From Bernardetia sp. (GTDB lineage Bacteria; Bacteroidota; Bacteroidia; Cytophagales; Bernardetiaceae): a stretch of 64,000 nt of DNA. Under the pieces are notes generated by a model that ran no database searches, was not told the DNA's origin, and saw only the letters and a list, made by a program, of their open reading frames with translations. Shown here piece after piece: positions 2,411 to 48,397 of this stretch (positions within the stretch are counted from its first letter, which is position 1; the number at the start of each line of letters is the position of its first letter). The translations under genes and the position numbers were made by a program. The stretch lies in NCBI RefSeq assembly GCF_020630935.1, contig NZ_JAHDIG010000013.1, positions 1-64,000 on the forward strand, written 5' to 3'.

Positions 2411-4567
2411 TCAACTTTCTAATTTGAAACCTATTAGGAGCATATCATCTATTTGCTTATGAAATCCTTTCCATGTATTGATCACCTCTTCTACTTTTTG
2501 TTCCTGCTCTGTAAATGGAGCTTCCTGTATTTCTGTAAGCAGTTGGTAGAGACGACGAGGCATAAACTTTTTATTTCGCTCTCCCCCAAACTGATCTTGT
2601 ATTCCATCAGAATAAAGATAGAAAGTAGTTGGTTTATCTATAAATACTTTATGCAACTTAAACTTTTGTCCTTTAAAATAATCTGTTGCTCCTCCAATGA
2701 TTATTTTATCTCCTTTTATTTTATGCATTTCTCCTTGCTGAAAATAAACAAGAGGTTGTTTAGCTCCTGCATATTCTAAAAAGGGTTTTTCTACAGAAAG
2801 ATTGATTCGGCAAATGGCAATATCCATTCCGTCTCTGTTTGTACCACTCTTTTGCTTTAAGGCTCTAGTAATTTCTAATCGGAGTGTATTAAGTATTTCA
2901 TCTGGATGAAGAATGTTTTTAGCATGAATAATTTGATGTAGTAAATCATTTCCTATTAAAGACATAAATGCACCAGGAACACCATGTCCAGTACAATCTA
3001 CTGAAGCGATAAAGATATCTTGTTCTTTTTTAGAATAAAAGTAAAAATCTCCAGAAACGACATCTTTAGGTCGGAAGAAAATCATACTCTTTGGCAAATT
3101 TTCTTTTATCTCTGAAAGACTTGGTAATATAGCTCCTTGAATTTGCTGAGCGTAAGTAATACTAGATAAAATATCTTGATTCTTTTTTTCTATGAGTATG
3201 TTTTGTTCATTTAGCCTTTCTAAGTTTACTGAAAGCTCTTCATTTACTACATTGAGTTCTTCTGTACGTTCTTCTACCTTTTCTTCTAACCTCTTGTTTT
3301 GAGTTTCTACAAACTTTCTGTGTTCTTCAGAGGTTTTGAGCAGCTCTGCTTGTATGAACTCTTTCTCTCTTCGTATAATATTCATTCTATCTCCTAAAGC
3401 TAAAGAGAACATCCAAACCTCTAAGGCTACCCCAAAATATAAAGCATTGCGAGTATATGGATTAAAAGGAATAACACCAAATAAAACAAAGAAAAAAGTA
3501 AAAACTCCTGTAATCATAAAAGTCCAGCCTAAAGCATAAAAACGGGCTTGTTTATCTCCTTTGAAGGCATAATAATAAGCAGTAACTAAGCAAGTAGCAT
3601 AGAGCAATAATATACATCCTTGGAAAGGAGCAACAGTATCCACCAATTCTACTCCAAATAAGGTAAGGAGAGGAAATACACCAGATATAATTACAAGTTC
3701 TGCTATAATAATTTGCCTAACTATTTTTCCTTTTGAACTACTAAGATTTAAGTATTTAATACAGAAAATCCCTATAAATAAATACACAAAAGGATGCCAA
3801 AACAAAAAGTAATTATTCCACCATTTCTTATCAATAAAGCCAATATTTATATCTTGAATGAAAGGATAACCATTGGCGTAGGTCATTGATATAGACATTA
3901 GTAGTAAATATCCAATATAATATACATATATAATGTCTTTAGTAGAGAGATATATGAAAGCATTATAGAGAATCATGATTATCATAATTCCTAAGAACCC
4001 TGCCGTAAGAAAATCATTTTTTGTCTTGTTTTTGTAAAGAGCAGGTAATGTTCCAATTTGAAGAGGTAACTCAAAGGTTAGAGCTTCTTCAACTCTCAAG
4101 TAATAAGTGTTTTGGGTCTGATAAGTTGGCTTAGTTGTAGTAAGTGGAAACCAAAATAAATTTACGTCTACCAATTTAGATTGCTCTGGGCGAAATGTAC
4201 CTGTTTGTGCAACTAATGAATAATTTGAAGAGCTATCAAGAGCAAAAAAATCTATATATCTTGCATAGGTACTACCAGCTTCTAGCCAAAGTTTGTCATT
4301 AGTGAGGTTATTGACAGTAATCTTAAACCAAAATGCACTACGAGTTGCTGCATAAGTAAATACTTTTTTATTATTTAATTTGAACTGCTGCTGATATGCA
4401 TCTGATAATACATCATTTATGGTAAGTGTTCCTGTTTTGTCTTCTAAAAACTCTATTGTTTCTCCTATTACCATAATTTCCTTTGCATCTTCAAACTGAA
4501 TAACTCTATCTTGAGCAAACAAAACTATTGGTATAAAAACAAAAAAAAGTATATAAAAGTATTTCAT
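2411..4567 (-). CDS. 7TM-DISM sensor fused to SpoIIE PP2C-type phosphatase
   Basis: 718 residues. A signal peptide (1-18, ending LFAQ) precedes an extracellular 7TMR-DISMED2-like beta domain (about 40-165), a seven-helix 7TMR-DISM membrane domain (about 185-390), a coiled coil (about 395-475) and a SpoIIE/RsbU phosphatase domain (about 490-718). The phosphatase keeps SGDFYF, DCTGHGVPGAFMS, DGMD, YSDGIQDQ and a final DDMLLIG, so the metal-binding acids are present. It probably senses a periplasmic ligand and dephosphorylates a STAS-type protein in the cytoplasm; the target is not adjacent. Two more SpoIIE phosphatases lie at 40180 and 44955. A CAAAGGTA (minus-strand TACCTTTG) at 4578-4585 could be its -7 box, but would give a nearly leaderless mRNA. 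Confidence 0.9.
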   Translation of the reverse strand: MKYFYILFFVFIPIVLFAQDRVIQFEDAKEIMVIGETIEFLEDKTGTLTINDVLSDAYQQQFKLNNKKVFTYAATRSAFWFKITVNNLTNDKLWLEAGSTYARYIDFFALDSSSNYSLVAQTGTFRPEQSKLVDVNLFWFPLTTTKPTYQTQNTYYLRVEEALTFELPLQIGTLPALYKNKTKNDFLTAGFLGIMIIMILYNAFIYLSTKDIIYVYYIGYLLLMSISMTYANGYPFIQDINIGFIDKKWWNNYFLFWHPFVYLFIGIFCIKYLNLSSSKGKIVRQIIIAELVIISGVFPLLTLFGVELVDTVAPFQGCILLLYATCLVTAYYYAFKGDKQARFYALGWTFMITGVFTFFFVLFGVIPFNPYTRNALYFGVALEVWMFSLALGDRMNIIRREKEFIQAELLKTSEEHRKFVETQNKRLEEKVEERTEELNVVNEELSVNLERLNEQNILIEKKNQDILSSITYAQQIQGAILPSLSEIKENLPKSMIFFRPKDVVSGDFYFYSKKEQDIFIASVDCTGHGVPGAFMSLIGNDLLHQIIHAKNILHPDEILNTLRLEITRALKQKSGTNRDGMDIAICRINLSVEKPFLEYAGAKQPLVYFQQGEMHKIKGDKIIIGGATDYFKGQKFKLHKVFIDKPTTFYLYSDGIQDQFGGERNKKFMPRRLYQLLTEIQEAPFTEQEQKVEEVINTWKGFHKQIDDMLLIGFKLES

Positions 4568-32528: not shown

Positions 32529-32948
32529 CTAAAGTTTTGACCAGTTTTCATATTGAAGCTCATCTATTCTACCAAAATGCTTTTCATTGTTCGTAATCAG
32601 TATATAACCTTCTACAATGGCTGTGGCAGCAATCAGAATATCATTATGAGCAATGCTATTGCCTTCTTTTTTTAAGGTGGCGTAAATTTGTGCTGCTTTT
32701 TTAGCAATTTCTTTGCTTATGGGCAAGATGGTTTGAGCCATCAGAAACTCATCAATTTCATTTGTTCTCTCTTCTGTATCTGCAAAATAAAGTCCATTCA
32801 AAAGCTCATAATAGGTAATAATGCTAATAGAAAATGTTCGATTTGCTTTCAGATAGTCATTTATTTGTTGTGTTGCTTGCTGCTCGTGGGCTTTTCTATT
32901 GCGAAAGAAAAAAGAAAGTATATCTGTGTCTATGAGTATAGGTTTCAT
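32529..32948 (-). CDS. PIN-domain (VapC-like) ribonuclease
   Basis: 139 residues, typical VapC length. The four acidic or polar metal positions are visible: D7/D9 (LIDTDIL), E48 (TYYELLNGL), D103 (AHNDILIAATA) and a late position where VapC usually has a second acidic pair but here N120/N121 (TNNEKHF). PIN toxins cut tRNA or rRNA. No VapB antitoxin is adjacent: its ATG directly abuts the TAG of a lipoprotein gene on the same strand. It may be an orphan or use a distant antitoxin. Confidence 0.8.
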   Translation of the reverse strand: MKPILIDTDILSFFFRNRKAHEQQATQQINDYLKANRTFSISIITYYELLNGLYFADTEERTNEIDEFLMAQTILPISKEIAKKAAQIYATLKKEGNSIAHNDILIAATAIVEGYILITNNEKHFGRIDELQYENWSKL

Positions 32949-33692
32949 CTACTGCTTGTCCATTTCTTTGTTTAAATATTCCTTTGTCGTATAGATGGCA
33001 TTTACTACAATATTTTTATTTACATCTATTACAAATTCGCTAAGTCCTATGTGCGATTTATTTCTAGGATTCCAGTCGTAGGTATAGCCAAGCTGACTCC
33101 ATGGATATTTTTTATCTATTTCACATCCGTAATAACGACTTATCCTATTTTTATTTATCCAATCTTGATAGGATTCTTCTGTATCTTTAGGAAAGCATAA
33201 ATCACATGCATTGTCTGTAATTTCTTTGTCTGGACAAGGACGAAACAAATCCTCTGGTTTTACCCAAAACTCTACAAAATAGCTGTATGTAGCATTGGGA
33301 GGCAGCCCCAATAGTTGCTTCAATCTCATATCTACATCTTTAGCATGTTCTTTTTTCATTCTCTGATATAGCTCAGGAGCTGTTGTTACCCATATCTGAT
33401 AACTTCCAGTATTATAATGAGTAGAATCTATGTATTTTTGGTAAAATGAGATGTTTTGCTTCCAAGTAACCACCAAAATATGCTCTTCTCCGTTGATTGT
33501 TTTACGAACTAAATTCTCATTTTGAGAATTTATAGTTACCAATCTGTCATATACTTTATTTTCTGTCGGAGACATAGAATTTTCTATGGCTTTCTGATAT
33601 ACAGCAAATGCTTTTTCTTGAGATAGCTTGACAGATGTGCAGCTTACTAAAAGCAAGAGCGCAAAAAAAACAACTAGATTACTTTTTTTCAT
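32949..33692 (-). CDS. hypothetical lipoprotein
   Basis: 247 residues with a lipoprotein signal (MKKSNLVVFFALLLLVSC, Cys18). The mature part has a late cluster of four cysteines (CPDKE...CDLCF...GCEI, about 155-200), perhaps disulfides or a metal site. No family recognised. Its stop codon abuts the start of the PIN gene, implying translational coupling, although the two act in different compartments. Confidence 0.65.
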   Translation of the reverse strand: MKKSNLVVFFALLLLVSCTSVKLSQEKAFAVYQKAIENSMSPTENKVYDRLVTINSQNENLVRKTINGEEHILVVTWKQNISFYQKYIDSTHYNTGSYQIWVTTAPELYQRMKKEHAKDVDMRLKQLLGLPPNATYSYFVEFWVKPEDLFRPCPDKEITDNACDLCFPKDTEESYQDWINKNRISRYYGCEIDKKYPWSQLGYTYDWNPRNKSHIGLSEFVIDVNKNIVVNAIYTTKEYLNKEMDKQ

Positions 33693-40179: not shown

Positions 40180-43100
40180 ATGCAATATAGATTCCATCAT
40201 ATTTTTTCAAGACCTTTATTTGCATTTGTGATGCTCTTGTTATTTATCCTAACAAGCAGCAATGCTTTTGTAGTAGCTCAAAATAATGGAACACAAGACT
40301 TGCCAAAACTAAGAGTAGAACAACTTTCTATTGACCAAGGCTTATCCCAAAATACGGTCAATGCAATGATACAAGACAGTGAGGGATACTTATGGATAGG
40401 CACAGATGATGGATTGAATCGCTATAATGCTTATGATGTTACTATTTTTCGCCACAAAAGAGAGGATTCATTATCTATTATAGATAATCAGATAATGTCT
40501 ATCTATGAAGATACTAACCATAATATCTGGATAGGTACGATAGCAGGAGTATCTATTTTTGATCGTAAAACACAATCTTTTAAATCCTTTTACAAAAAAG
40601 AAGGAGACCCAAACACGTTAGTAGATAATGAGGTAAAGGCTATAACAGAAGATAAAGAAGGTTTTATATGGCTCGGTACAGCAAATGGTCTTAGCAAATA
40701 CGACTATAACAATAACTCTTTTACCAACTTTGTAGCTTCAGAAGAGGACTCTACTATGCTTGGAAGTAATGATATTGCCAAATTGTATGTAGATAAAGCA
40801 AATAACCTATGGATAGGAACAAATAGTTTCGGTGTAAATAGATGGTCTAGTGATCGTTCAGAAAAGAAATTATACCGATATAACCGTTCAGATACAACTT
40901 CTCTTTGGGGGTTTGGCGGCTATGATATAAAGGAAGATGCAGACGGGAACATTTGGATTGCATCAGAAGGAGGATTCAATCAATATAATCCAAACATTGA
41001 TGGATTTGATCGCTACCGTTATCAAGGTAAATCATATAGTCTTCAATCATTTACTTTAGGAAGCAATAATACTTTTTGGGGAGCTGGGCATGATTATATT
41101 TACAAATTGGACTTAAAAACCAAAGAGGTTATTAGATATAGAACTTCATTTGATGCTTTAGGACAAATGCCAGCAATAGTCAGAACAAAGGAAAATGTCA
41201 TTTGGGTAGCCTCTAGAAATCTAGGAGCTATTAAGTATGACCCTCTAACAAATCAGTTTGACTACTACTACTATGAAATAGGAAACAAAAACTCTCTACC
41301 TCAGAGAAATGTGTGGGCAATGTTGAAAGATTCAGAAGGAATTGTTTGGGTAAGTACTAATAATGGATTTGCTCGCATAGATAGAAGTGGTGTAATTCCT
41401 AAGTATTACAATATTTATGGAGGAGAAGGAAAAAATGACTTGAAAGATTCTAAGACAGGAGCTTTACTTGAAACTAATGAAGGACAATTATGGGTAGCTA
41501 CAGGAGCTGACATTTCTCGTTTGGTTAGTTTTTCTGAAAAAGGAGGAGCTAAATTTGTTACTTTAGAGGCTGACCTTAAAGATTCTACTACTGTTCAAAG
41601 ACAAATATTGAACCTTCTACAAGACAAGCAAGGGACAGTTTGGGTAGGAACTTTTGATGGCTTCTACAAAATGACCCCATCTCAAAGAAATGAATTTGGA
41701 TATGAAGCCCAACATTTTCTAGATGATGAAGATATTTGGACAACTTATGAAGATAGAAGTGGCATTTTATGGCTTGGTACTGCACAAGGATTAATAAAGG
41801 TAATTAGAGATGAAAATAATACACCTATTGATTATAAATACTATAAACACGACCCAGAAAATTTAAAATCTGTTAGTCATAATACTGTTAGAGCTATTGC
41901 AGAAGATTCTAAAGGCAACTTTTGGGTAGGAACTACCAATGGATTAAATATAATGAACCGTGAGACTGGAGAGTTTGAACACTGGGGACAGAGGAACGAC
42001 CTTGCTAACTATGCTATTTATGGTATTTTGGTAGATGAAAAAGATAATCTTTGGATAAGTACCAACTTTGGCTTAATGCGTCTTTTGGGAGATGATAGTA
42101 TAGATGATGCAAAACGCATGACCAATTATAATCCAAAAGATGGTTTGCAAAGTAGTGAATTTAACTCAGGAGCATTTTTTAAAGCTGAAGATGGAGAGAT
42201 GTTTTTTGGGGGCATACAAGGATTAAATGCCTTTTATCCACAAAATATAAAAGCAAGCATGTATGTTCCTCCAGTAGTGATGACTGACTTTAAGGTACTC
42301 AACCGTTCAGTAGGCATTCAGAGTTTGGGAAATCCTGACTCGCCTCTAAAAGTAGATATTTCACAAACAGAAGAAATGACCCTCACTTATGAGGACAGAG
42401 TAGTTACCTTTGAATTTGCAGCTATTAATTTTAGAAGACCTGAAAAAACAAACTATTCCTATATTTTAGAAGGCTTTGATAAGGATTGGAATGAAGTAGG
42501 TAGCCGTCGTTTTGCAACATATAGTAACCTTCCTGCAGGAAATTATACATTTAGAGTAAAAGCATCAAATAGTGACGGGATAGAAAATAAAGAAGAAATC
42601 GCAATAAAAATAAAGGTTCTTCCTCCTTGGTGGAAGTCGTGGTGGTTCTTAACTATTGCAACCCTTTCTGTGCTTGGTATTTCATTTGGCTTCTACAAAA
42701 GTAGAATGAATGCTGTCAAACGTCAGAATGATACTTTGGAAAGACTTGTTGGAGAACGAACAGCAGAAATAGGGCAACAAAATCTTAAATTAGAAAGTCA
42801 AAAGACTGAAATTGAACGCTCATATAGCAATATTCGTGTACTTAGCGAAATAGGTCAGAAAATTACTTCTATCCTTGACCTTGACACAGTAATTAGCTCT
42901 GTTTATGAATATGTAAATGAGCTTACAGATGCTACTGCATTTGGTATTGGAATTTATAATCCAAATAAGGAGCGTATAGATTTTAGAGGTTTTATAGAAA
43001 ATGGAGAACGCATTCCTGATAGCTATGATAATATTACAGATGAAAACAAACTTTCTGTGGTTTGTCTCACTCGGAATGAAGATATTATTATCAACAATTT

Positions 43101-44121
43101 TGCAAAAGAACATACGAAGTATATTAGTGAGGTTTCTTTAGATAGAGTGGGAGATATGTATCAGTCTATTATTTATCTACCTCTTCTTTTAGAGGGAAAA
43201 ATTGTTGGGGTTTTGACAGTTCAAAGCCATAAAACAAATGCCTATTCTAAAAATGATTTGACTATTCTGCGTACGTTAGCCTCTTATATTTCTATTGCAT
43301 TAGATAATGCTCGTACTTATACGCAATTAGAAGGAGCAAATGAGCTTATCAGAACAAAAAATCAAGCTATAATGGATAGTATTCGCTATGGAGAGACTAT
43401 TCAGCATGCTATTCTTCCCGACCCTCAAGATTTTATCAGAAATTTTGATGACCATTTCATTATCTTCAAGCCACAAGCAGTCGTTTCAGGAGATTTTTAT
43501 TGGTCTATACGTACAGGAAATAAAACCTTTGTTGCTGTTGTAGATTGTACAGGTCACGGAGTTCCAGGAGCGTTTATGTCTATGATTGGAAATACTATCT
43601 TAAATGAGATTGTAACTCTTCAAGATGTAACAGAGCCTGCTCAGATATTAGAAAACTTAAATCAAGGAATCTTTGAAGCTCTTCACCAAGAAGATTATCA
43701 AAATTTAGATGGAATGGATGTTTGCTTGTGCGTCATAGATGATGCAGATGAACTAAACATGCGAGTTGTGAATTTTGCTGGAGCAAAAAGACCTTTATTT
43801 ATACTAAAAAATGACAAACTTATAGAGGTAAAAGGAAGCCGTAAATCTATTGGAGGAAGACAAAAGTCTGATTCAGATTATGAACAACGTCAGCTTTTAC
43901 TACACCCTGGTGATATTCTGTATTTAACCACTGATGGATATGTAGATCAAAACAATTCTGAACGTATCAAATATGGTACACTTCACTTCAAAAAGATATT
44001 GGCTTCATTTACAGGAATGTCTTTACATGAACAAAAAGAAGTTCTTTTAGAAGAGATGAGAAATCACATGGGCGAAGAAGAACAACGTGATGATATAACA
44101 CTTATAGGACTAAAAATATAA
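40180..44121 (+). CDS. two-component-propeller sensor with GAF and SpoIIE phosphatase
   Basis: 1313 residues. A signal peptide (1-34, ending VVAQ) is followed by about a dozen two-component-propeller (Reg_prop) repeats (about 45-690) of the type GYLWIGTDDGLNRYN, then a Y_Y_Y Ig-like domain (about 725-805), a membrane helix (about 818-838), a GAF domain (about 877-1047) and a SpoIIE phosphatase (about 1075-1313; SGDFYW, DCTGHGVPGAFMS, DGMD, TTDGYVDQ, RDDITLIG). Bacteroidota hybrid two-component sensors share this propeller/Y_Y_Y head; here a PP2C output replaces the kinase. It likely senses an extracellular ligand and dephosphorylates a STAS protein, a candidate being the product of 44354. Confidence 0.9.
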   Translation: MQYRFHHIFSRPLFAFVMLLLFILTSSNAFVVAQNNGTQDLPKLRVEQLSIDQGLSQNTVNAMIQDSEGYLWIGTDDGLNRYNAYDVTIFRHKREDSLSIIDNQIMSIYEDTNHNIWIGTIAGVSIFDRKTQSFKSFYKKEGDPNTLVDNEVKAITEDKEGFIWLGTANGLSKYDYNNNSFTNFVASEEDSTMLGSNDIAKLYVDKANNLWIGTNSFGVNRWSSDRSEKKLYRYNRSDTTSLWGFGGYDIKEDADGNIWIASEGGFNQYNPNIDGFDRYRYQGKSYSLQSFTLGSNNTFWGAGHDYIYKLDLKTKEVIRYRTSFDALGQMPAIVRTKENVIWVASRNLGAIKYDPLTNQFDYYYYEIGNKNSLPQRNVWAMLKDSEGIVWVSTNNGFARIDRSGVIPKYYNIYGGEGKNDLKDSKTGALLETNEGQLWVATGADISRLVSFSEKGGAKFVTLEADLKDSTTVQRQILNLLQDKQGTVWVGTFDGFYKMTPSQRNEFGYEAQHFLDDEDIWTTYEDRSGILWLGTAQGLIKVIRDENNTPIDYKYYKHDPENLKSVSHNTVRAIAEDSKGNFWVGTTNGLNIMNRETGEFEHWGQRNDLANYAIYGILVDEKDNLWISTNFGLMRLLGDDSIDDAKRMTNYNPKDGLQSSEFNSGAFFKAEDGEMFFGGIQGLNAFYPQNIKASMYVPPVVMTDFKVLNRSVGIQSLGNPDSPLKVDISQTEEMTLTYEDRVVTFEFAAINFRRPEKTNYSYILEGFDKDWNEVGSRRFATYSNLPAGNYTFRVKASNSDGIENKEEIAIKIKVLPPWWKSWWFLTIATLSVLGISFGFYKSRMNAVKRQNDTLERLVGERTAEIGQQNLKLESQKTEIERSYSNIRVLSEIGQKITSILDLDTVISSVYEYVNELTDATAFGIGIYNPNKERIDFRGFIENGERIPDSYDNITDENKLSVVCLTRNEDIIINNFAKEHTKYISEVSLDRVGDMYQSIIYLPLLLEGKIVGVLTVQSHKTNAYSKNDLTILRTLASYISIALDNARTYTQLEGANELIRTKNQAIMDSIRYGETIQHAILPDPQDFIRNFDDHFIIFKPQAVVSGDFYWSIRTGNKTFVAVVDCTGHGVPGAFMSMIGNTILNEIVTLQDVTEPAQILENLNQGIFEALHQEDYQNLDGMDVCLCVIDDADELNMRVVNFAGAKRPLFILKNDKLIEVKGSRKSIGGRQKSDSDYEQRQLLLHPGDILYLTTDGYVDQNNSERIKYGTLHFKKILASFTGMSLHEQKEVLLEEMRNHMGEEEQRDDITLIGLKI

Positions 44122-44151
44122 CTCTTACTTCATATAGAAAAATACCTATTT

Positions 44152-44179
44152 TAGCACTTTATTCTTAGATAAAGTGCTA
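44152..44179 (+). terminator. terminator after propeller-SpoIIE gene
   Basis: TAGCACTTTA and TAAAGTGCTA form a perfect 10-bp stem around TTCTTAGA, followed by TTTTTTG. Confidence 0.85.
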
Positions 44180-44353
44180 TTTTTTGTTTCAAACACTTTC
44201 TTTCACTATCAAACAATACAGGTTACTTTGATGTTTTTTTGTAACTTGCTATACAAACAAATTAGCAATTCAAATTTTCAAAAATTATTTCGTATATTTT
44301 ACCTAATAACAGTTTTTGATTCCTACTCCACATTCATTTTTTAAAAAAATAGT

Positions 44354-44740
44354 ATGCAATTTACACTCAACAAACAAGAAAAATATACTGTATTTAAGCT
44401 ACAAGAAGAAAAACTAGATTCTTCTGTTGCTCCAAAGTTAAAGACAGAGTTTTTTACACTTTATCAATCAGGAATGGTCAATCTTATTTTTGATATGAGC
44501 GATATCAAATATGTAGATTCGTCTGGACTTAGTTCTATCTTGGTTGCCAAACGTCTTTCAGAGCAAATCAATGGATTCTTGGCTTTAGCTGCTGTAAGTG
44601 AGCATGTAATGAAGCTCATGACAATTTCAAAATTAGACAGTGTTTTAAATATTATTCCAACGGTAGAAGAATCAGTAGATGCTGTTTTTATGGCAGAATT
44701 AGAACGTGATATCAAAGAAAATGAAAAGAATAGCAACTAA
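44354..44740 (+). CDS. STAS-domain anti-sigma-factor antagonist-like protein
   Basis: 128 residues. STAS fold with FDMSDIKYVDSSGLSSIL (about 46-63); the DSSGL motif at 55-59 keeps the phosphorylatable Ser (Ser57, matching Ser58 of SpoIIAA). Such proteins bind a HPK-type anti-sigma kinase and are reset by SpoIIE phosphatases. Two SpoIIE genes flank it (40180 and 44955), but no anti-sigma kinase or sigma factor lies in the window. Terminators on both sides make it an independent transcript. Confidence 0.88.
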   Translation: MQFTLNKQEKYTVFKLQEEKLDSSVAPKLKTEFFTLYQSGMVNLIFDMSDIKYVDSSGLSSILVAKRLSEQINGFLALAAVSEHVMKLMTISKLDSVLNIIPTVEESVDAVFMAELERDIKENEKNSN

Positions 44741-44773
44741 CTAACTTCTCAATAGAATAATGATTACCCACAC

Positions 44774-44810
44774 AACCTAATATTAATCTACATTAGATTA
44801 ATATTAGGTT
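44774..44810 (+). terminator. terminator after STAS gene
   Basis: A perfect 17-bp stem (arms 44774-44790 and 44794-44810, core CCTAATATTAATCTA) with loop CAT, ending in TTTTTATTTT. Confidence 0.85.
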
Positions 44811-44954
44811 TTTATTTTAATAAATTTATAAAATTTGCTTTACTAAAGCGTAATTATTTTGTAATCTGTTAGGTGAGCTTTTAAACCTTCTTCCTCGTAA
44901 TTTTGCAGTCAAGAAATGACGACCAGCTATTTTAAGATTATAATTTTAGTAGGA

Positions 44955-46847
44955 ATGAATCAAAGTTATACAACTTACAACCAGCCAAATCAAAAATTTA
45001 GAGGAATAAAGAATAAACTCCAACTTTATTTTAGCATCTATTTGTTATTGACAGCACTAATTATTGGAGCTATTTTTATGTTTTATGAGAAACAAAAAAA
45101 CATAGAAGAAATTACTGATTTACTTACCACACTTCATATTGATATTCAAATGCTTAGTGGAATAGAAAATGATTTCTTTACTTATGAGACTATAAATAAT
45201 AACTTCTACAAAACAGGGGAAAGCGAATATTTAAACCATCGTAAACAAAAACTATATGATGTTCAGCGCAATTTAATAGCATTAAAAAACAGAAAGGAGT
45301 TACGCAATAAAAATATTGATAAAAAGCTATTCCAATTAAAACAAGCTGTTGGAGAATATGAAGTCCTCTTCGAACGCCTAGTACAAATTATACAACGTAA
45401 AGGACATAAAGATTATGGTAAAGTAGGACAGATGCGTAAGTTCATTCATCAAATCGAAAACTCAGATTTGCCTTTTAATAAAGAAACACTGTTAATGATT
45501 AGAAGACATGAAAAAGATTTCATTATTCGAAAAGAAGAAGAGTATATCAAAAAATTATCACTCGCTGTACAAAGACTTCGTTCAGAGATTCGTTCAACTA
45601 TAAAAAATGAAAAACTCCAAAAAGAAATGGTAACGCTATTACGAAATTACCAATATGCTTTTTTGGATATGGTAGATTATGAAAAACAAATTGGACTAAG
45701 CATCCATGAGGGAATGCACTACCAAACTAGGCAAAAAGCCTACAAAATTGCTGATATTATAGCAGAAATAAATAAAGAAGGACATTTACAAGCAGAGCAG
45801 ATTACACAACAAATAAAATATACATTGGGAGCTGCTATCATACTATGTTTTATTTTGGGTATGGTTGTCAGTTATTTGATTAGTAAAAAACTCAGCTTAC
45901 CAGTTCGTCAACTTTCCAACTCTATTCATAAAGTCATAAAAAATGATTTTTCAGAAGATTATAAAATAAATCCTGTTATTACAAATGATGAAATAGGTTG
46001 GCTTTCTAAAGACTTTGGTCTAATGCTTAATAAAGTTCAGAATAGTTTAAGCGAAACACAAGAAAAAACTTGGGAAATTGAACGTTCACAAGCTCAAATA
46101 ATGGATTCAATTAGATATGCTAGTCAGATTCAGAATGCTATTTTACCTACTGAAGCTGAACTAAGAGAGCTTTTTACAGAAAGCTTTGTTATTTATAAGC
46201 CTCAAAAAGTAGTTTCAGGAGATTTTTACTGGGTCTATCGTAAGAGACATAAGACTTTCATTGCAGCAGTAGATTGTACAGGACATGGCGTTCCAGGAGC
46301 TTTTATGTCTATGATTGGACAGACTCTTTTAAATAAAATTGTAGGACAAAGTAAGATATATGACCCTGCTATGATTTTAGAAGTCTTACACTTAGAAATT
46401 CAACATGCATTAAAGCAAAATGAAGGAAAAAATGATGATGGAATGGAAGTCGCTATTTGTGTTATAGAAAATACAGATTTAGGTAAAGAGGTAACTTTTG
46501 CAGGAGCACATCGTCCTTTATACTATGTGCAAGATGGGCAATTTTTAAAAGCAAAAGGTAACCGACGTAGTATAGGAGGAAAGCAAAAACAGGAACACCA
46601 GCAGTTCATAACACATCTTATCCATCTACAAACAGGAGATACTATCTACCTTACAACAGACGGATTTGCAGACCAAAACAATGATAGAAGAGAAAAATAC
46701 GGCACACAAAGATTCATACAATTCCTAGATACTATTAAAGAATATCCTCTTACTACACAAAAATTAGAGCTGATAGAGGAGTTTGACAGTTTTAGGAATA
46801 ATGAGCCTCAACGAGACGACCTCACCATTTTGGGAATAAGAGTATAA
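44955..46847 (+). CDS. HAMP-domain SpoIIE phosphatase
   Basis: 630 residues from ATG 44955; an in-frame ATG at 44916 would add 13 mostly hydrophobic residues. A first helix (about 25-45), an extracytoplasmic helical sensor (about 46-290), a second helix (about 293-315), HAMP (about 316-370) and a SpoIIE domain (about 415-630) with SGDFYW, DCTGHGVPGAFMS, DGMEVAI, TTDGFADQ and RDDLTILG. Domain order suggests a transmembrane receptor whose output is dephosphorylation. It is the third SpoIIE phosphatase in the window and lies just after the STAS gene. Its stop is 5 bases from the stop of the convergent histidine kinase gene. Confidence 0.9.
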   Translation: MNQSYTTYNQPNQKFRGIKNKLQLYFSIYLLLTALIIGAIFMFYEKQKNIEEITDLLTTLHIDIQMLSGIENDFFTYETINNNFYKTGESEYLNHRKQKLYDVQRNLIALKNRKELRNKNIDKKLFQLKQAVGEYEVLFERLVQIIQRKGHKDYGKVGQMRKFIHQIENSDLPFNKETLLMIRRHEKDFIIRKEEEYIKKLSLAVQRLRSEIRSTIKNEKLQKEMVTLLRNYQYAFLDMVDYEKQIGLSIHEGMHYQTRQKAYKIADIIAEINKEGHLQAEQITQQIKYTLGAAIILCFILGMVVSYLISKKLSLPVRQLSNSIHKVIKNDFSEDYKINPVITNDEIGWLSKDFGLMLNKVQNSLSETQEKTWEIERSQAQIMDSIRYASQIQNAILPTEAELRELFTESFVIYKPQKVVSGDFYWVYRKRHKTFIAAVDCTGHGVPGAFMSMIGQTLLNKIVGQSKIYDPAMILEVLHLEIQHALKQNEGKNDDGMEVAICVIENTDLGKEVTFAGAHRPLYYVQDGQFLKAKGNRRSIGGKQKQEHQQFITHLIHLQTGDTIYLTTDGFADQNNDRREKYGTQRFIQFLDTIKEYPLTTQKLELIEEFDSFRNNEPQRDDLTILGIRV

Positions 46848-46852
46848 AAAAC

Positions 46853-48397
46853 CTAGTTAGAAGGCTGATTGAAAGGCAGTCTGATAATGAAAACAGACCC
46901 TTTACCTACCTCACTCTCTACCTCTATCGTTCCATGGTGAGCTTCTACGATGGTCTTTACATAGCTGAGTCCTAAGCCAAAACCTTTAACATTGTGTACA
47001 TTTCCTGTCGGCACTCTATAAAATTTATCAAAAATTTTGTTTACTACTTTCTTAGGGATGCCCTGTCCTTCATCAATAAATTTTATTTCAATTCCGTTAG
47101 AAGTATTTCTAGTCTGTACTTCTATGCGTGGTATATTAGGAGAATATTTGTTGGCATTGTCTAGCAAGTTAGAAATAATACTTGTGATATGAACTTGGTC
47201 TCCTTGTATGATAGTTTGGTCTGCCTGTAAGTCTGTAAATATTTTACCTCCTCGGTTTTCTACTTGTACAGCACTATTTCGAATTACTTTTTCTAAAATC
47301 TGATGTAAGTCCAATGACTTCAAATTGAGTTTGAAATCTTTTCTATCTAGCTTTGCTGCCTGTAAAACTTTTTCTACTTGCGAACTAAGTCTTTTACTCT
47401 CATCTGCAATTACACCTAAATAACGATTTGTCTTTTCTTGATTTTGTTGCACACTCACATCTTGCAAAAACTCACGAGCAAGCGAAATGGTTGCAATCGG
47501 AGTTTTGAACTCGTGTGTCATATTATTGATAAAATCATTGGTAACTTCTGATACTTTTTTCTGACGAAGAATAGTATAAATAGCTGCTGCAAAACAAAGA
47601 ATAATCACACCAATAAAAATAACAGAAGAAGAGAGTATCATTGCCATTTGTCCTATCAAATACTTAGATTCTTTTGGAAAATATACACACAAAATATTTT
47701 CTGGATGACGCATATCATTAGGAAAAAGCTTTGCCGAATAGTTTGTTTCTAATAAACATTCACTACTTGTAGAAGGAGAAGCAAAATACCACTGTTTTTT
47801 AGGATGATTAAACACAGCAAAATCGTAATCTAATGTAATTCCTTTATTGTGCATTTCTTCACGCAAAATAGAATCAATTACAGGACGGCTCGTACGTTGT
47901 TGAATAGGTTTTTCTTGATTTTGAAAAAATAATTTTTCAGCAATTACAGAAACAATTTGAGATTTATTCATTCTTCGACGCTTATTTTCTTCCCAAGCCG
48001 TTTTTGCATCACGAATATCATATTTCATCATAGGTTCTAGAACTAATTCTGTACTTTGACTACCCGTAAACATTCCATTCTTTACTTCAAACTGTAGCTC
48101 ATACGTCATAGAACGAGCAGCATTTTGGGCTCTTGTGATAGAGTCTAACGTCGACATGAGTTGTCCACTCATTTGGTCTGCACTACTTTTCATCACATAA
48201 ATAGCTTCATGTTTTTCTAAGCGAGTAGCTACTTTTTCAAGAGCTTGATGTACATTTTGCTTAAAACGAGACTTATTTAGTGTTATGGTAGTAGTTATCC
48301 AATAAAACTGAAGTCCGATAAGTCCGAGCATTGCCAAACTCATAAGAGCGATGATATAGCGTACTTGTTTTGCGCCTACTAATCCTTCTATTTTCAT
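46853..48397 (-). CDS. membrane sensor histidine kinase
   Basis: 514 residues. Helices at about 15-33 and 252-275 bracket a periplasmic sensor region of no recognised type. HisKA (NMTHEFKTPIATISLARE, His about 296) and HATPase_c motifs (NLLDNANKYS, DEGQGIP, GFGLGLSYVK) are intact. No HAMP domain or response regulator is seen nearby, so the partner is elsewhere. The 257 bases upstream hold no other feature I can support. Confidence 0.9.
   Translation of the reverse strand: MKIEGLVGAKQVRYIIALMSLAMLGLIGLQFYWITTTITLNKSRFKQNVHQALEKVATRLEKHEAIYVMKSSADQMSGQLMSTLDSITRAQNAARSMTYELQFEVKNGMFTGSQSTELVLEPMMKYDIRDAKTAWEENKRRRMNKSQIVSVIAEKLFFQNQEKPIQQRTSRPVIDSILREEMHNKGITLDYDFAVFNHPKKQWYFASPSTSSECLLETNYSAKLFPNDMRHPENILCVYFPKESKYLIGQMAMILSSSVIFIGVIILCFAAAIYTILRQKKVSEVTNDFINNMTHEFKTPIATISLAREFLQDVSVQQNQEKTNRYLGVIADESKRLSSQVEKVLQAAKLDRKDFKLNLKSLDLHQILEKVIRNSAVQVENRGGKIFTDLQADQTIIQGDQVHITSIISNLLDNANKYSPNIPRIEVQTRNTSNGIEIKFIDEGQGIPKKVVNKIFDKFYRVPTGNVHNVKGFGLGLSYVKTIVEAHHGTIEVESEVGKGSVFIIRLPFNQPSN

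What the first reader, a model, noticed from the sequence alone, without database searches (positions are those of the whole stretch)
40180..46847. Partner-switching locus: two sensor phosphatases flanking one STAS protein
A propeller-GAF-SpoIIE phosphatase and a HAMP-SpoIIE phosphatase bracket a STAS gene, with the opposite-strand histidine kinase ending 5 bases further. No anti-sigma kinase is present. Two extracellular inputs would converge on one switch; the third phosphatase at 2411-4567 may feed in as well.
Basis: partly seen in the sequence, partly recalled or inferred. Interest (0 to 1): 0.6.

Follow-up and report, generated by a model that had tools for sequence, protein, structure and literature searches.

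The report
Two unrelated signalling switches, side by side
Two sensor enzymes and the small switch protein between them look like one signalling unit, but genome comparisons indicate that they belong to two different switches: the small protein belongs to an old one whose other parts are encoded elsewhere, and the enzymes to a family of over 70 sensors aimed at a different protein.

Summary
The genes are real: a propeller-GAF phosphatase, a STAS gene with an intact DSSG phosphosite (homologous serine Ser56, not Ser57), and a HAMP-type phosphatase, with a convergent histidine kinase 5 bp on. They are not one functional locus. The STAS gene is a separate transcription unit between two strong terminators. 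Its orthologue is a core Cytophagales gene, normally directly upstream of rnz. The propeller phosphatase lies elsewhere in all six congeners; the HAMP phosphatase is next to STAS in 5 of 7.

Both flankers, and the third phosphatase at 2411-4567, have SiaA-type PP2C domains, as do 72 of 74 examined in this genome. Over 118 Cytophagales genomes, phosphatase number tracks SiaC (the SiaA substrate; rho 0.92). Three of this genome's phosphatases sit beside SiaB, two of them also beside SiaC.

The STAS phosphosite instead co-varies with an orphan RsbW-like kinase (HPK-Q; here on contig C5, elsewhere usually before ybeY). DSSG occurs in 17 of 18 genomes read with HPK-Q and 0 of 9 without. A matching RsbU-type phosphatase clade (here on C15) completes a dispersed RsbU-V-W-like switch.

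All of this is comparative inference, untested biochemically.

The parts
40180..44121 (+). Sensor phosphatase: periplasmic-type two-component propeller, Y_Y_Y, GAF, SiaA-type PP2C domain
   Evidence: Pfam; PDB 6k4e SiaA E 3e-38 vs SpoIIE 2e-5; NCBIfam SiaA 3e-62
44152..44179 (+). Intrinsic terminator after the propeller phosphatase
   Evidence: 12-bp stem plus T run, fold z -5.9
44354..44740 (+). STAS protein of the rnz-linked Cytophagales family ('STAS-Z'); predicted anti-anti-sigma-type antagonist
   Evidence: Pfam STAS 9e-15; orthologue in 101/118 genomes; AlphaFold2 pLDDT 93, best PDB match 4xs5
44519..44521 (+). Codon of Ser56, predicted phosphoacceptor in D55-S56-S57-G58
   Evidence: Alignment to SpoIIAA Ser58; DSSG conserved 73/73 loci
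44774..44810 (+). Intrinsic terminator after STAS
   Evidence: 17-bp stem plus T run, fold z -10.0
44916..46847 (+). Membrane sensor phosphatase, HAMP-like plus SiaA-type PP2C domain (start probably 44955)
   Evidence: Pfam; 6k4e E 9e-30; NCBIfam SiaA 4e-65; start from orthologues
46853..48397 (-). Convergent orphan sensor histidine kinase (HisKA-HATPase); neighbour, no evidence of functional link
   Evidence: Pfam; conserved beside murB/sua5 in relatives, including G006 which lacks the HAMP phosphatase
2411..4567 (-). Third phosphatase: 7TMR-DISM plus SiaA-type PP2C domain; not part of the STAS switch
   Evidence: Pfam; NCBIfam SiaA 2e-48

Best explanation
The stretch holds members of two different partner-switching families that became neighbours by rearrangement. 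(1) The STAS protein belongs to a dispersed RsbU-V-W-like switch. A stand-alone HPK kinase (HPK-Q, C5:30848 here) binds its target or phosphorylates Ser56 of STAS. An RsbU-type phosphatase (420-aa clade, C15:21254 here) removes the phosphate. Unphosphorylated STAS then binds HPK-Q and frees the kinase's target, which is unknown. (2) The two flanking phosphatases and the one at 2411-4567 are sensor-fused SiaA-type PP2C enzymes. They most likely dephosphorylate one or more of the genome's seven SiaC proteins, opposing SiaB kinases. Shown by computation: family assignments, loss of synteny, terminators, co-variation of phosphosite and kinase, and co-variation of phosphatase number with SiaC number. 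Inferred: phosphorylation, direct partners, outputs.
For: STAS: orthologue in all 11 family genomes and 101/118 order genomes; directly upstream of rnz in 66/73 loci; DSSG in 73/73; SpoIIE-domain neighbour in 1/73. Kinase: every typed two-HPK genome (18/18) has one HPK-Q and one HPK-A. HPK-A always sits beside its own STAS (19/19), so HPK-Q lacks an adjacent partner. STAS-Z is DSSG in 17 of 18 genomes read with HPK-Q (the other is DTTG) and in 0 of 9 without (E, Q, Q, D, A, A, G, T, and one DSAG); a further 14 genomes without HPK-Q lack STAS-Z. DSSG persists in six genomes with HPK-Q but no HPK-A. RsbU-type phosphatases split into a 420-aa clade (all three HPK-Q-only genomes tested) and a clade found in the HPK-A operon, mirroring the kinase tree. 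HPK-Q keeps the N-box TExxNNAIxHGN. Flankers: SiaA-type by PDB and NCBIfam; DCTGHG motif in 72/74. SpoIIE-domain count >2 if and only if SiaC is present, apart from 4 genomes with few phosphatases: 75/0/4/39, rho 0.92. SiaB beside three own phosphatases, SiaC beside two of them. Propeller phosphatase orthologue 61 kb or more from STAS in G001, G003, G004, G005 and on other contigs in G002, G006.
Against: The HAMP phosphatase is next to STAS in 5 of 7 Bernardetia genomes (one with a two-gene insert), so some link is possible. SiaC is structurally STAS-like (PMC8457831), so SiaA-type enzymes could cross-act. G038 and G104 have HPK-Q but no detected STAS-Z; G099 has Thr56. Genomes are related: the nine cases without HPK-Q reduce to about two independent events (family f10 and G017). 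The third own STAS (fur-STAS-purA) could be the HPK-Q partner instead, or as well.
Confidence: 0.75

Rival explanations
1. One reading: both flanking phosphatases dephosphorylate the STAS protein, so two outside signals converge on one switch.
For: Adjacency on one strand; HAMP phosphatase next to STAS in 5 of 7 congeners; catalytic residues intact (invariant in 40 paralogues); SiaC and STAS share a fold (PMC8457831).
Against: SiaA-type domains; phosphatase number follows SiaC, not HPK or STAS; STAS-Z with DSSG occurs in seven genomes without SiaC that have only two SpoIIE-domain phosphatases; terminators separate the genes; the propeller gene is never adjacent in relatives.
Confidence: 0.1
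2. Mixed model: the HAMP phosphatase was recruited to STAS in Bernardetia as an extra input, although most paralogues serve SiaC.
For: Adjacency conserved in 5 of 7 congeners, at about 80% protein identity.
Against: Separated by 1.5 Mb in G001 and absent from G006, which both keep STAS with DSSG; no sequence sign of a switch from SiaA-type to RsbU-type.
Confidence: 0.12
3. The STAS protein mainly acts with RNase Z, or on RNA processing, independently of phosphorylation; the phosphosite is an added control.
For: rnz linkage in 66/73 loci; STAS-Z, its C-terminal EEAxDAVFMxELE helix and often rnz linkage are kept in f10 genomes that lost the phosphosite.
Against: The STAS gene is uncoupled from rnz in Bernardetia without obvious loss; linkage to a housekeeping gene may only set expression; strict DSSG conservation elsewhere argues that phosphorylation matters.
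Confidence: 0.15

Closest known systems
RsbU-RsbV-RsbW / SpoIIE-SpoIIAA-SpoIIAB partner switches (Bacillus)
   Same: STAS fold with a Ser in a DS motif; HPK kinase with RsbW/SpoIIAB-like N-box; RsbU-type PP2C phosphatase in matching clades
   Different: The three genes are dispersed, in rnz, ybeY/queA and other contexts; no sigma factor target identified; STAS-Z has a long conserved C-terminal helix (residues 104-127)
SiaABCD of Pseudomonas aeruginosa (PMC7647112, PMC8457831)
   Same: Flankers' PP2C domains match SiaA (6k4e); the genome carries SiaB-SiaC pairs, some beside SiaA-type phosphatases
   Different: 72 SiaA-type phosphatases against 7 SiaC; varied sensors (propeller, 7TMR-DISM, TPR); no SiaD partner was looked for; full-length SiaA equivalog cut-off not reached
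Dyadobacter fermentans STAS, PDB 4xs5
   Same: Closest solved structure, Z 20.0, same C-terminal EEAIDAVFM motif
   Different: DATG in place of DSSG: a member without the phosphosite
rsbUVW cluster of marine flavobacterium MS024-2A (PMC2668756)
   Same: Resembles the HPK-A / STAS-A / 700-aa phosphatase operon found here in other Cytophagales
   Different: That operon is the second switch, not the one of the window STAS

Membership tests
RsbV/SpoIIAA-type anti-sigma antagonist | STAS fold | tested here: met
   Pfam, NCBIfam TIGR00377 above cut-off (58.3 vs 53.45); Z 17-20 to SpoIIAA and 4xs5
RsbV/SpoIIAA-type anti-sigma antagonist | Phosphoacceptor Ser in DS motif at the start of helix 2 | tested here: met
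   D55-S56; helix starts at 56 in the model; DSSG 73/73 loci
RsbV/SpoIIAA-type anti-sigma antagonist | Cognate HPK kinase in the genome, co-evolving with the phosphosite | tested here: met
   HPK-Q co-variation; about two independent losses behind the phosphosite part
RsbV/SpoIIAA-type anti-sigma antagonist | Phosphorylation by the kinase and release of a sigma factor | not testable with these tools
   needs biochemistry; target unknown
rsb-type partner-switching operon at 40180-46847 | Phosphatase, STAS and kinase co-transcribed or in conserved synteny | tested here: not met
   Terminators between genes, no kinase, synteny not conserved
RsbU/SpoIIE-type phosphatase (the flankers) | DVSGKG..AA-type metal motif and closest match to RsbU/SpoIIE | tested here: not met
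   DCTGHGVPGA; SpoIIE match 2e-5 vs SiaA 3e-38
SiaA-type PP2C phosphatase (the flankers) | PP2C domain closest to SiaA | tested here: met
   6k4e best PDB match; NF038263 best NCBIfam match
SiaA-type PP2C phosphatase (the flankers) | Full-length SiaA orthologue (NCBIfam equivalog cut-off 700 bits) | tested here: not met
   211, 220 and 165 bits: SiaA-like domain, not SiaA itself
SiaA-type PP2C phosphatase (the flankers) | SiaB and SiaC present in the genome | tested here: met
   7 SiaC in the genome; SiaB-SiaC pairs; none in the window
SiaA-type PP2C phosphatase (the flankers) | Dephosphorylates SiaC | not testable with these tools
   needs biochemistry

The most novel reading that the evidence does not exclude
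A core Cytophagales partner switch whose antagonist is embedded in the RNase Z operon and whose kinase is embedded in the YbeY-MnmG (here QueA) neighbourhood acts on RNA maturation or translation rather than on a sigma factor, with phosphorylation of STAS-Z as the switch.
Probability: 0.17. Interest if true: 0.75.

Novelty: new member of a known kind. Interest (0 to 1): 0.45.

Why it matters
It corrects a natural misreading: in Cytophagales a SpoIIE-domain phosphatase next to a STAS gene need not be its phosphatase, because two partner-switch families coexist and only the PP2C subtype tells them apart. It names testable partners for an uncharacterised core STAS protein (HPK-Q and the 420-aa RsbU-type phosphatase). 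It also shows a very large fan-in, with about 70 SiaA-type sensor phosphatases for seven SiaC proteins in one 4.7-Mb genome, for which I found no description in the literature searched.

Tried and rejected
Operon model: rejected on terminators and synteny. Histidine kinase 46853-48397 as part of the system: rejected as a convergent neighbour that stays beside murB when the phosphatase is absent. HPK-A (C32) as the STAS-Z kinase: disfavoured, since DSSG persists in six genomes without HPK-A and HPK-A always has its own STAS. Literature searches for SpoIIE phosphatases in Cytophagales, a STAS-RNase Z link or a YbeY-anti-sigma link gave nothing relevant. SiaC did not appear among the 50 structural rows listed for STAS-Z; that does not exclude a shared fold, which PMC8457831 reports. 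One own SpoIIE domain (C10:25357) was not fetched; one gene (C48) matched in two pieces.

Full report
Observation. The ORFs and domains are as described. The propeller phosphatase (40180-44121), the STAS gene (44354-44740) and the HAMP-type phosphatase (44916-46847) run in one direction, and the convergent histidine kinase ends 5 bp beyond. HAMP is a weak match. The serine homologous to SpoIIAA Ser58 is Ser56, not Ser57. Strong intrinsic terminators at 44152-44179 and 44774-44810 separate STAS from both neighbours, so the three genes are most likely three transcription units.

Not a conserved locus. Relatives place the genome in Bernardetia (Bernardetiaceae, Cytophagales). The STAS orthologue is in all 11 family genomes. 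Upstream of STAS, the congeners have rpsT and a DXP synthase gene, not the propeller phosphatase. The propeller phosphatase has 72-81% identical orthologues elsewhere in all six congeners, 61, 67 and 112 kb away in G003, G004 and G005 and 1.57 Mb away in G001. The HAMP phosphatase is next to STAS in five of seven genomes (G003 with a two-gene insert), 1.5 Mb away in G001 and missing from G006. In 73 loci, mostly from across Cytophagales, the STAS gene has rnz (tRNase Z) directly downstream in 66, a SpoIIE-domain gene in one, and DSSG in all 73.

Two kinds of phosphatase. The genome has about 75 SpoIIE-domain genes but only three stand-alone STAS proteins and two clear HPK kinases. Of 74 genes examined, 72 carry DCTGHG, and only C15 (417 aa) and C54 (716 aa) carry the RsbU-type motif. 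The PP2C domains of the two flankers match the SiaA structure 6k4e (identified in PMC7647112) at 3e-38 and 9e-30; the propeller one matches SpoIIE at only 2e-5. NCBIfam agrees, and puts the 2411-4567 enzyme with them. They fall short of the full-length SiaA equivalog cut-off, so they are SiaA-type, not SiaA. Among 40 full-length paralogues the catalytic aspartates are invariant and sensors are 7TMR-DISM (12), propeller (10), TPR (6) and others.

Their expected substrate. SiaA acts on SiaC phosphorylated at Thr68 by SiaB (PMC7647112). Seven SiaC genes occur here, with SiaB-SiaC pairs on at least three contigs. Three own phosphatase loci have SiaB alongside, two of them with SiaC; none has an HPK. 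G018 has a phosphatase-SiaB-SiaC gene cluster. Across 118 genomes, more than two SpoIIE-domain genes goes with SiaC in 75 of 75; with two or fewer, SiaC is present in 4 and absent in 39. Counts correlate at rho 0.92. Genomes are not independent, so the p-values overstate the strength.

The partners of the STAS protein. HPKs fall into two main clades. HPK-A always neighbours its own STAS, often with a 700-aa-type RsbU phosphatase. HPK-Q is an orphan, upstream of ybeY in 16 of 25 loci and next to queA in this genome. Eighteen of 18 typed two-HPK genomes have one of each; seven have only HPK-Q, one only HPK-A, three a third type. Where HPK-Q is present and the STAS was read, it is DSSG in 17 of 18. 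Where HPK-Q is absent, STAS is missing in 14 genomes and altered in all nine that keep it. The phosphosite part rests on about two independent losses (family f10 and G017). RsbU-type phosphatases form clades matching the HPK clades. By elimination, STAS, HPK-Q and the 420-aa phosphatase (C15 here) form one dispersed switch. (My notebook gives 22 DSSG genomes for this comparison; the recount is 17, since five were typed but their STAS not read.)

Structure. The STAS model is confident (pLDDT 93.4) and matches 4xs5, SpoIIAA and RsbV. A long C-terminal helix carries a conserved EEAxDAVFMxELE motif that is kept even where the phosphosite is lost, hinting at a role beyond phosphorylation.

Conclusion. 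The finding is a chance or lineage-specific neighbourhood of two switch families. Phosphorylation, partners and outputs remain inferred.

Noticed in passing
whole genome; e.g. window 2411-4567, 40180-44121, 44916-46847; L347 (three in tandem): About 72 SiaA-type sensor phosphatases against seven SiaC proteins; two related genomes (G051, G097) have about 170 candidates and 34 SiaC.
   Followed up: partly
L236, L241, L243, L254 and others; L078 in the own genome: The orphan HPK-Q kinase gene sits directly upstream of ybeY (and mnmG) in 16 of 25 loci; in this genome it is next to queA.
   Followed up: partly
L215-L223: In family f10 the STAS protein keeps its C-terminal motif, and often its place before rnz, but has lost the phosphosite; PDB 4xs5 (Dyadobacter) is such a member.
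   Followed up: yes
L079:8559-8897: Third stand-alone STAS protein of the genome (NSTG motif), between fur and purA; kinase and phosphatase unknown.
   Followed up: no
L078:5524-8007: A major-vault-protein-like gene (MVP shoulder domain) close to the HPK-Q gene.
   Followed up: no
window 44916-44955: The HAMP phosphatase start is probably 44955; orthologues begin there.
   Followed up: yes
window 32529-33692: PIN-domain protein with an adjacent 247-aa gene; a possible toxin-antitoxin-like pair.
   Followed up: no
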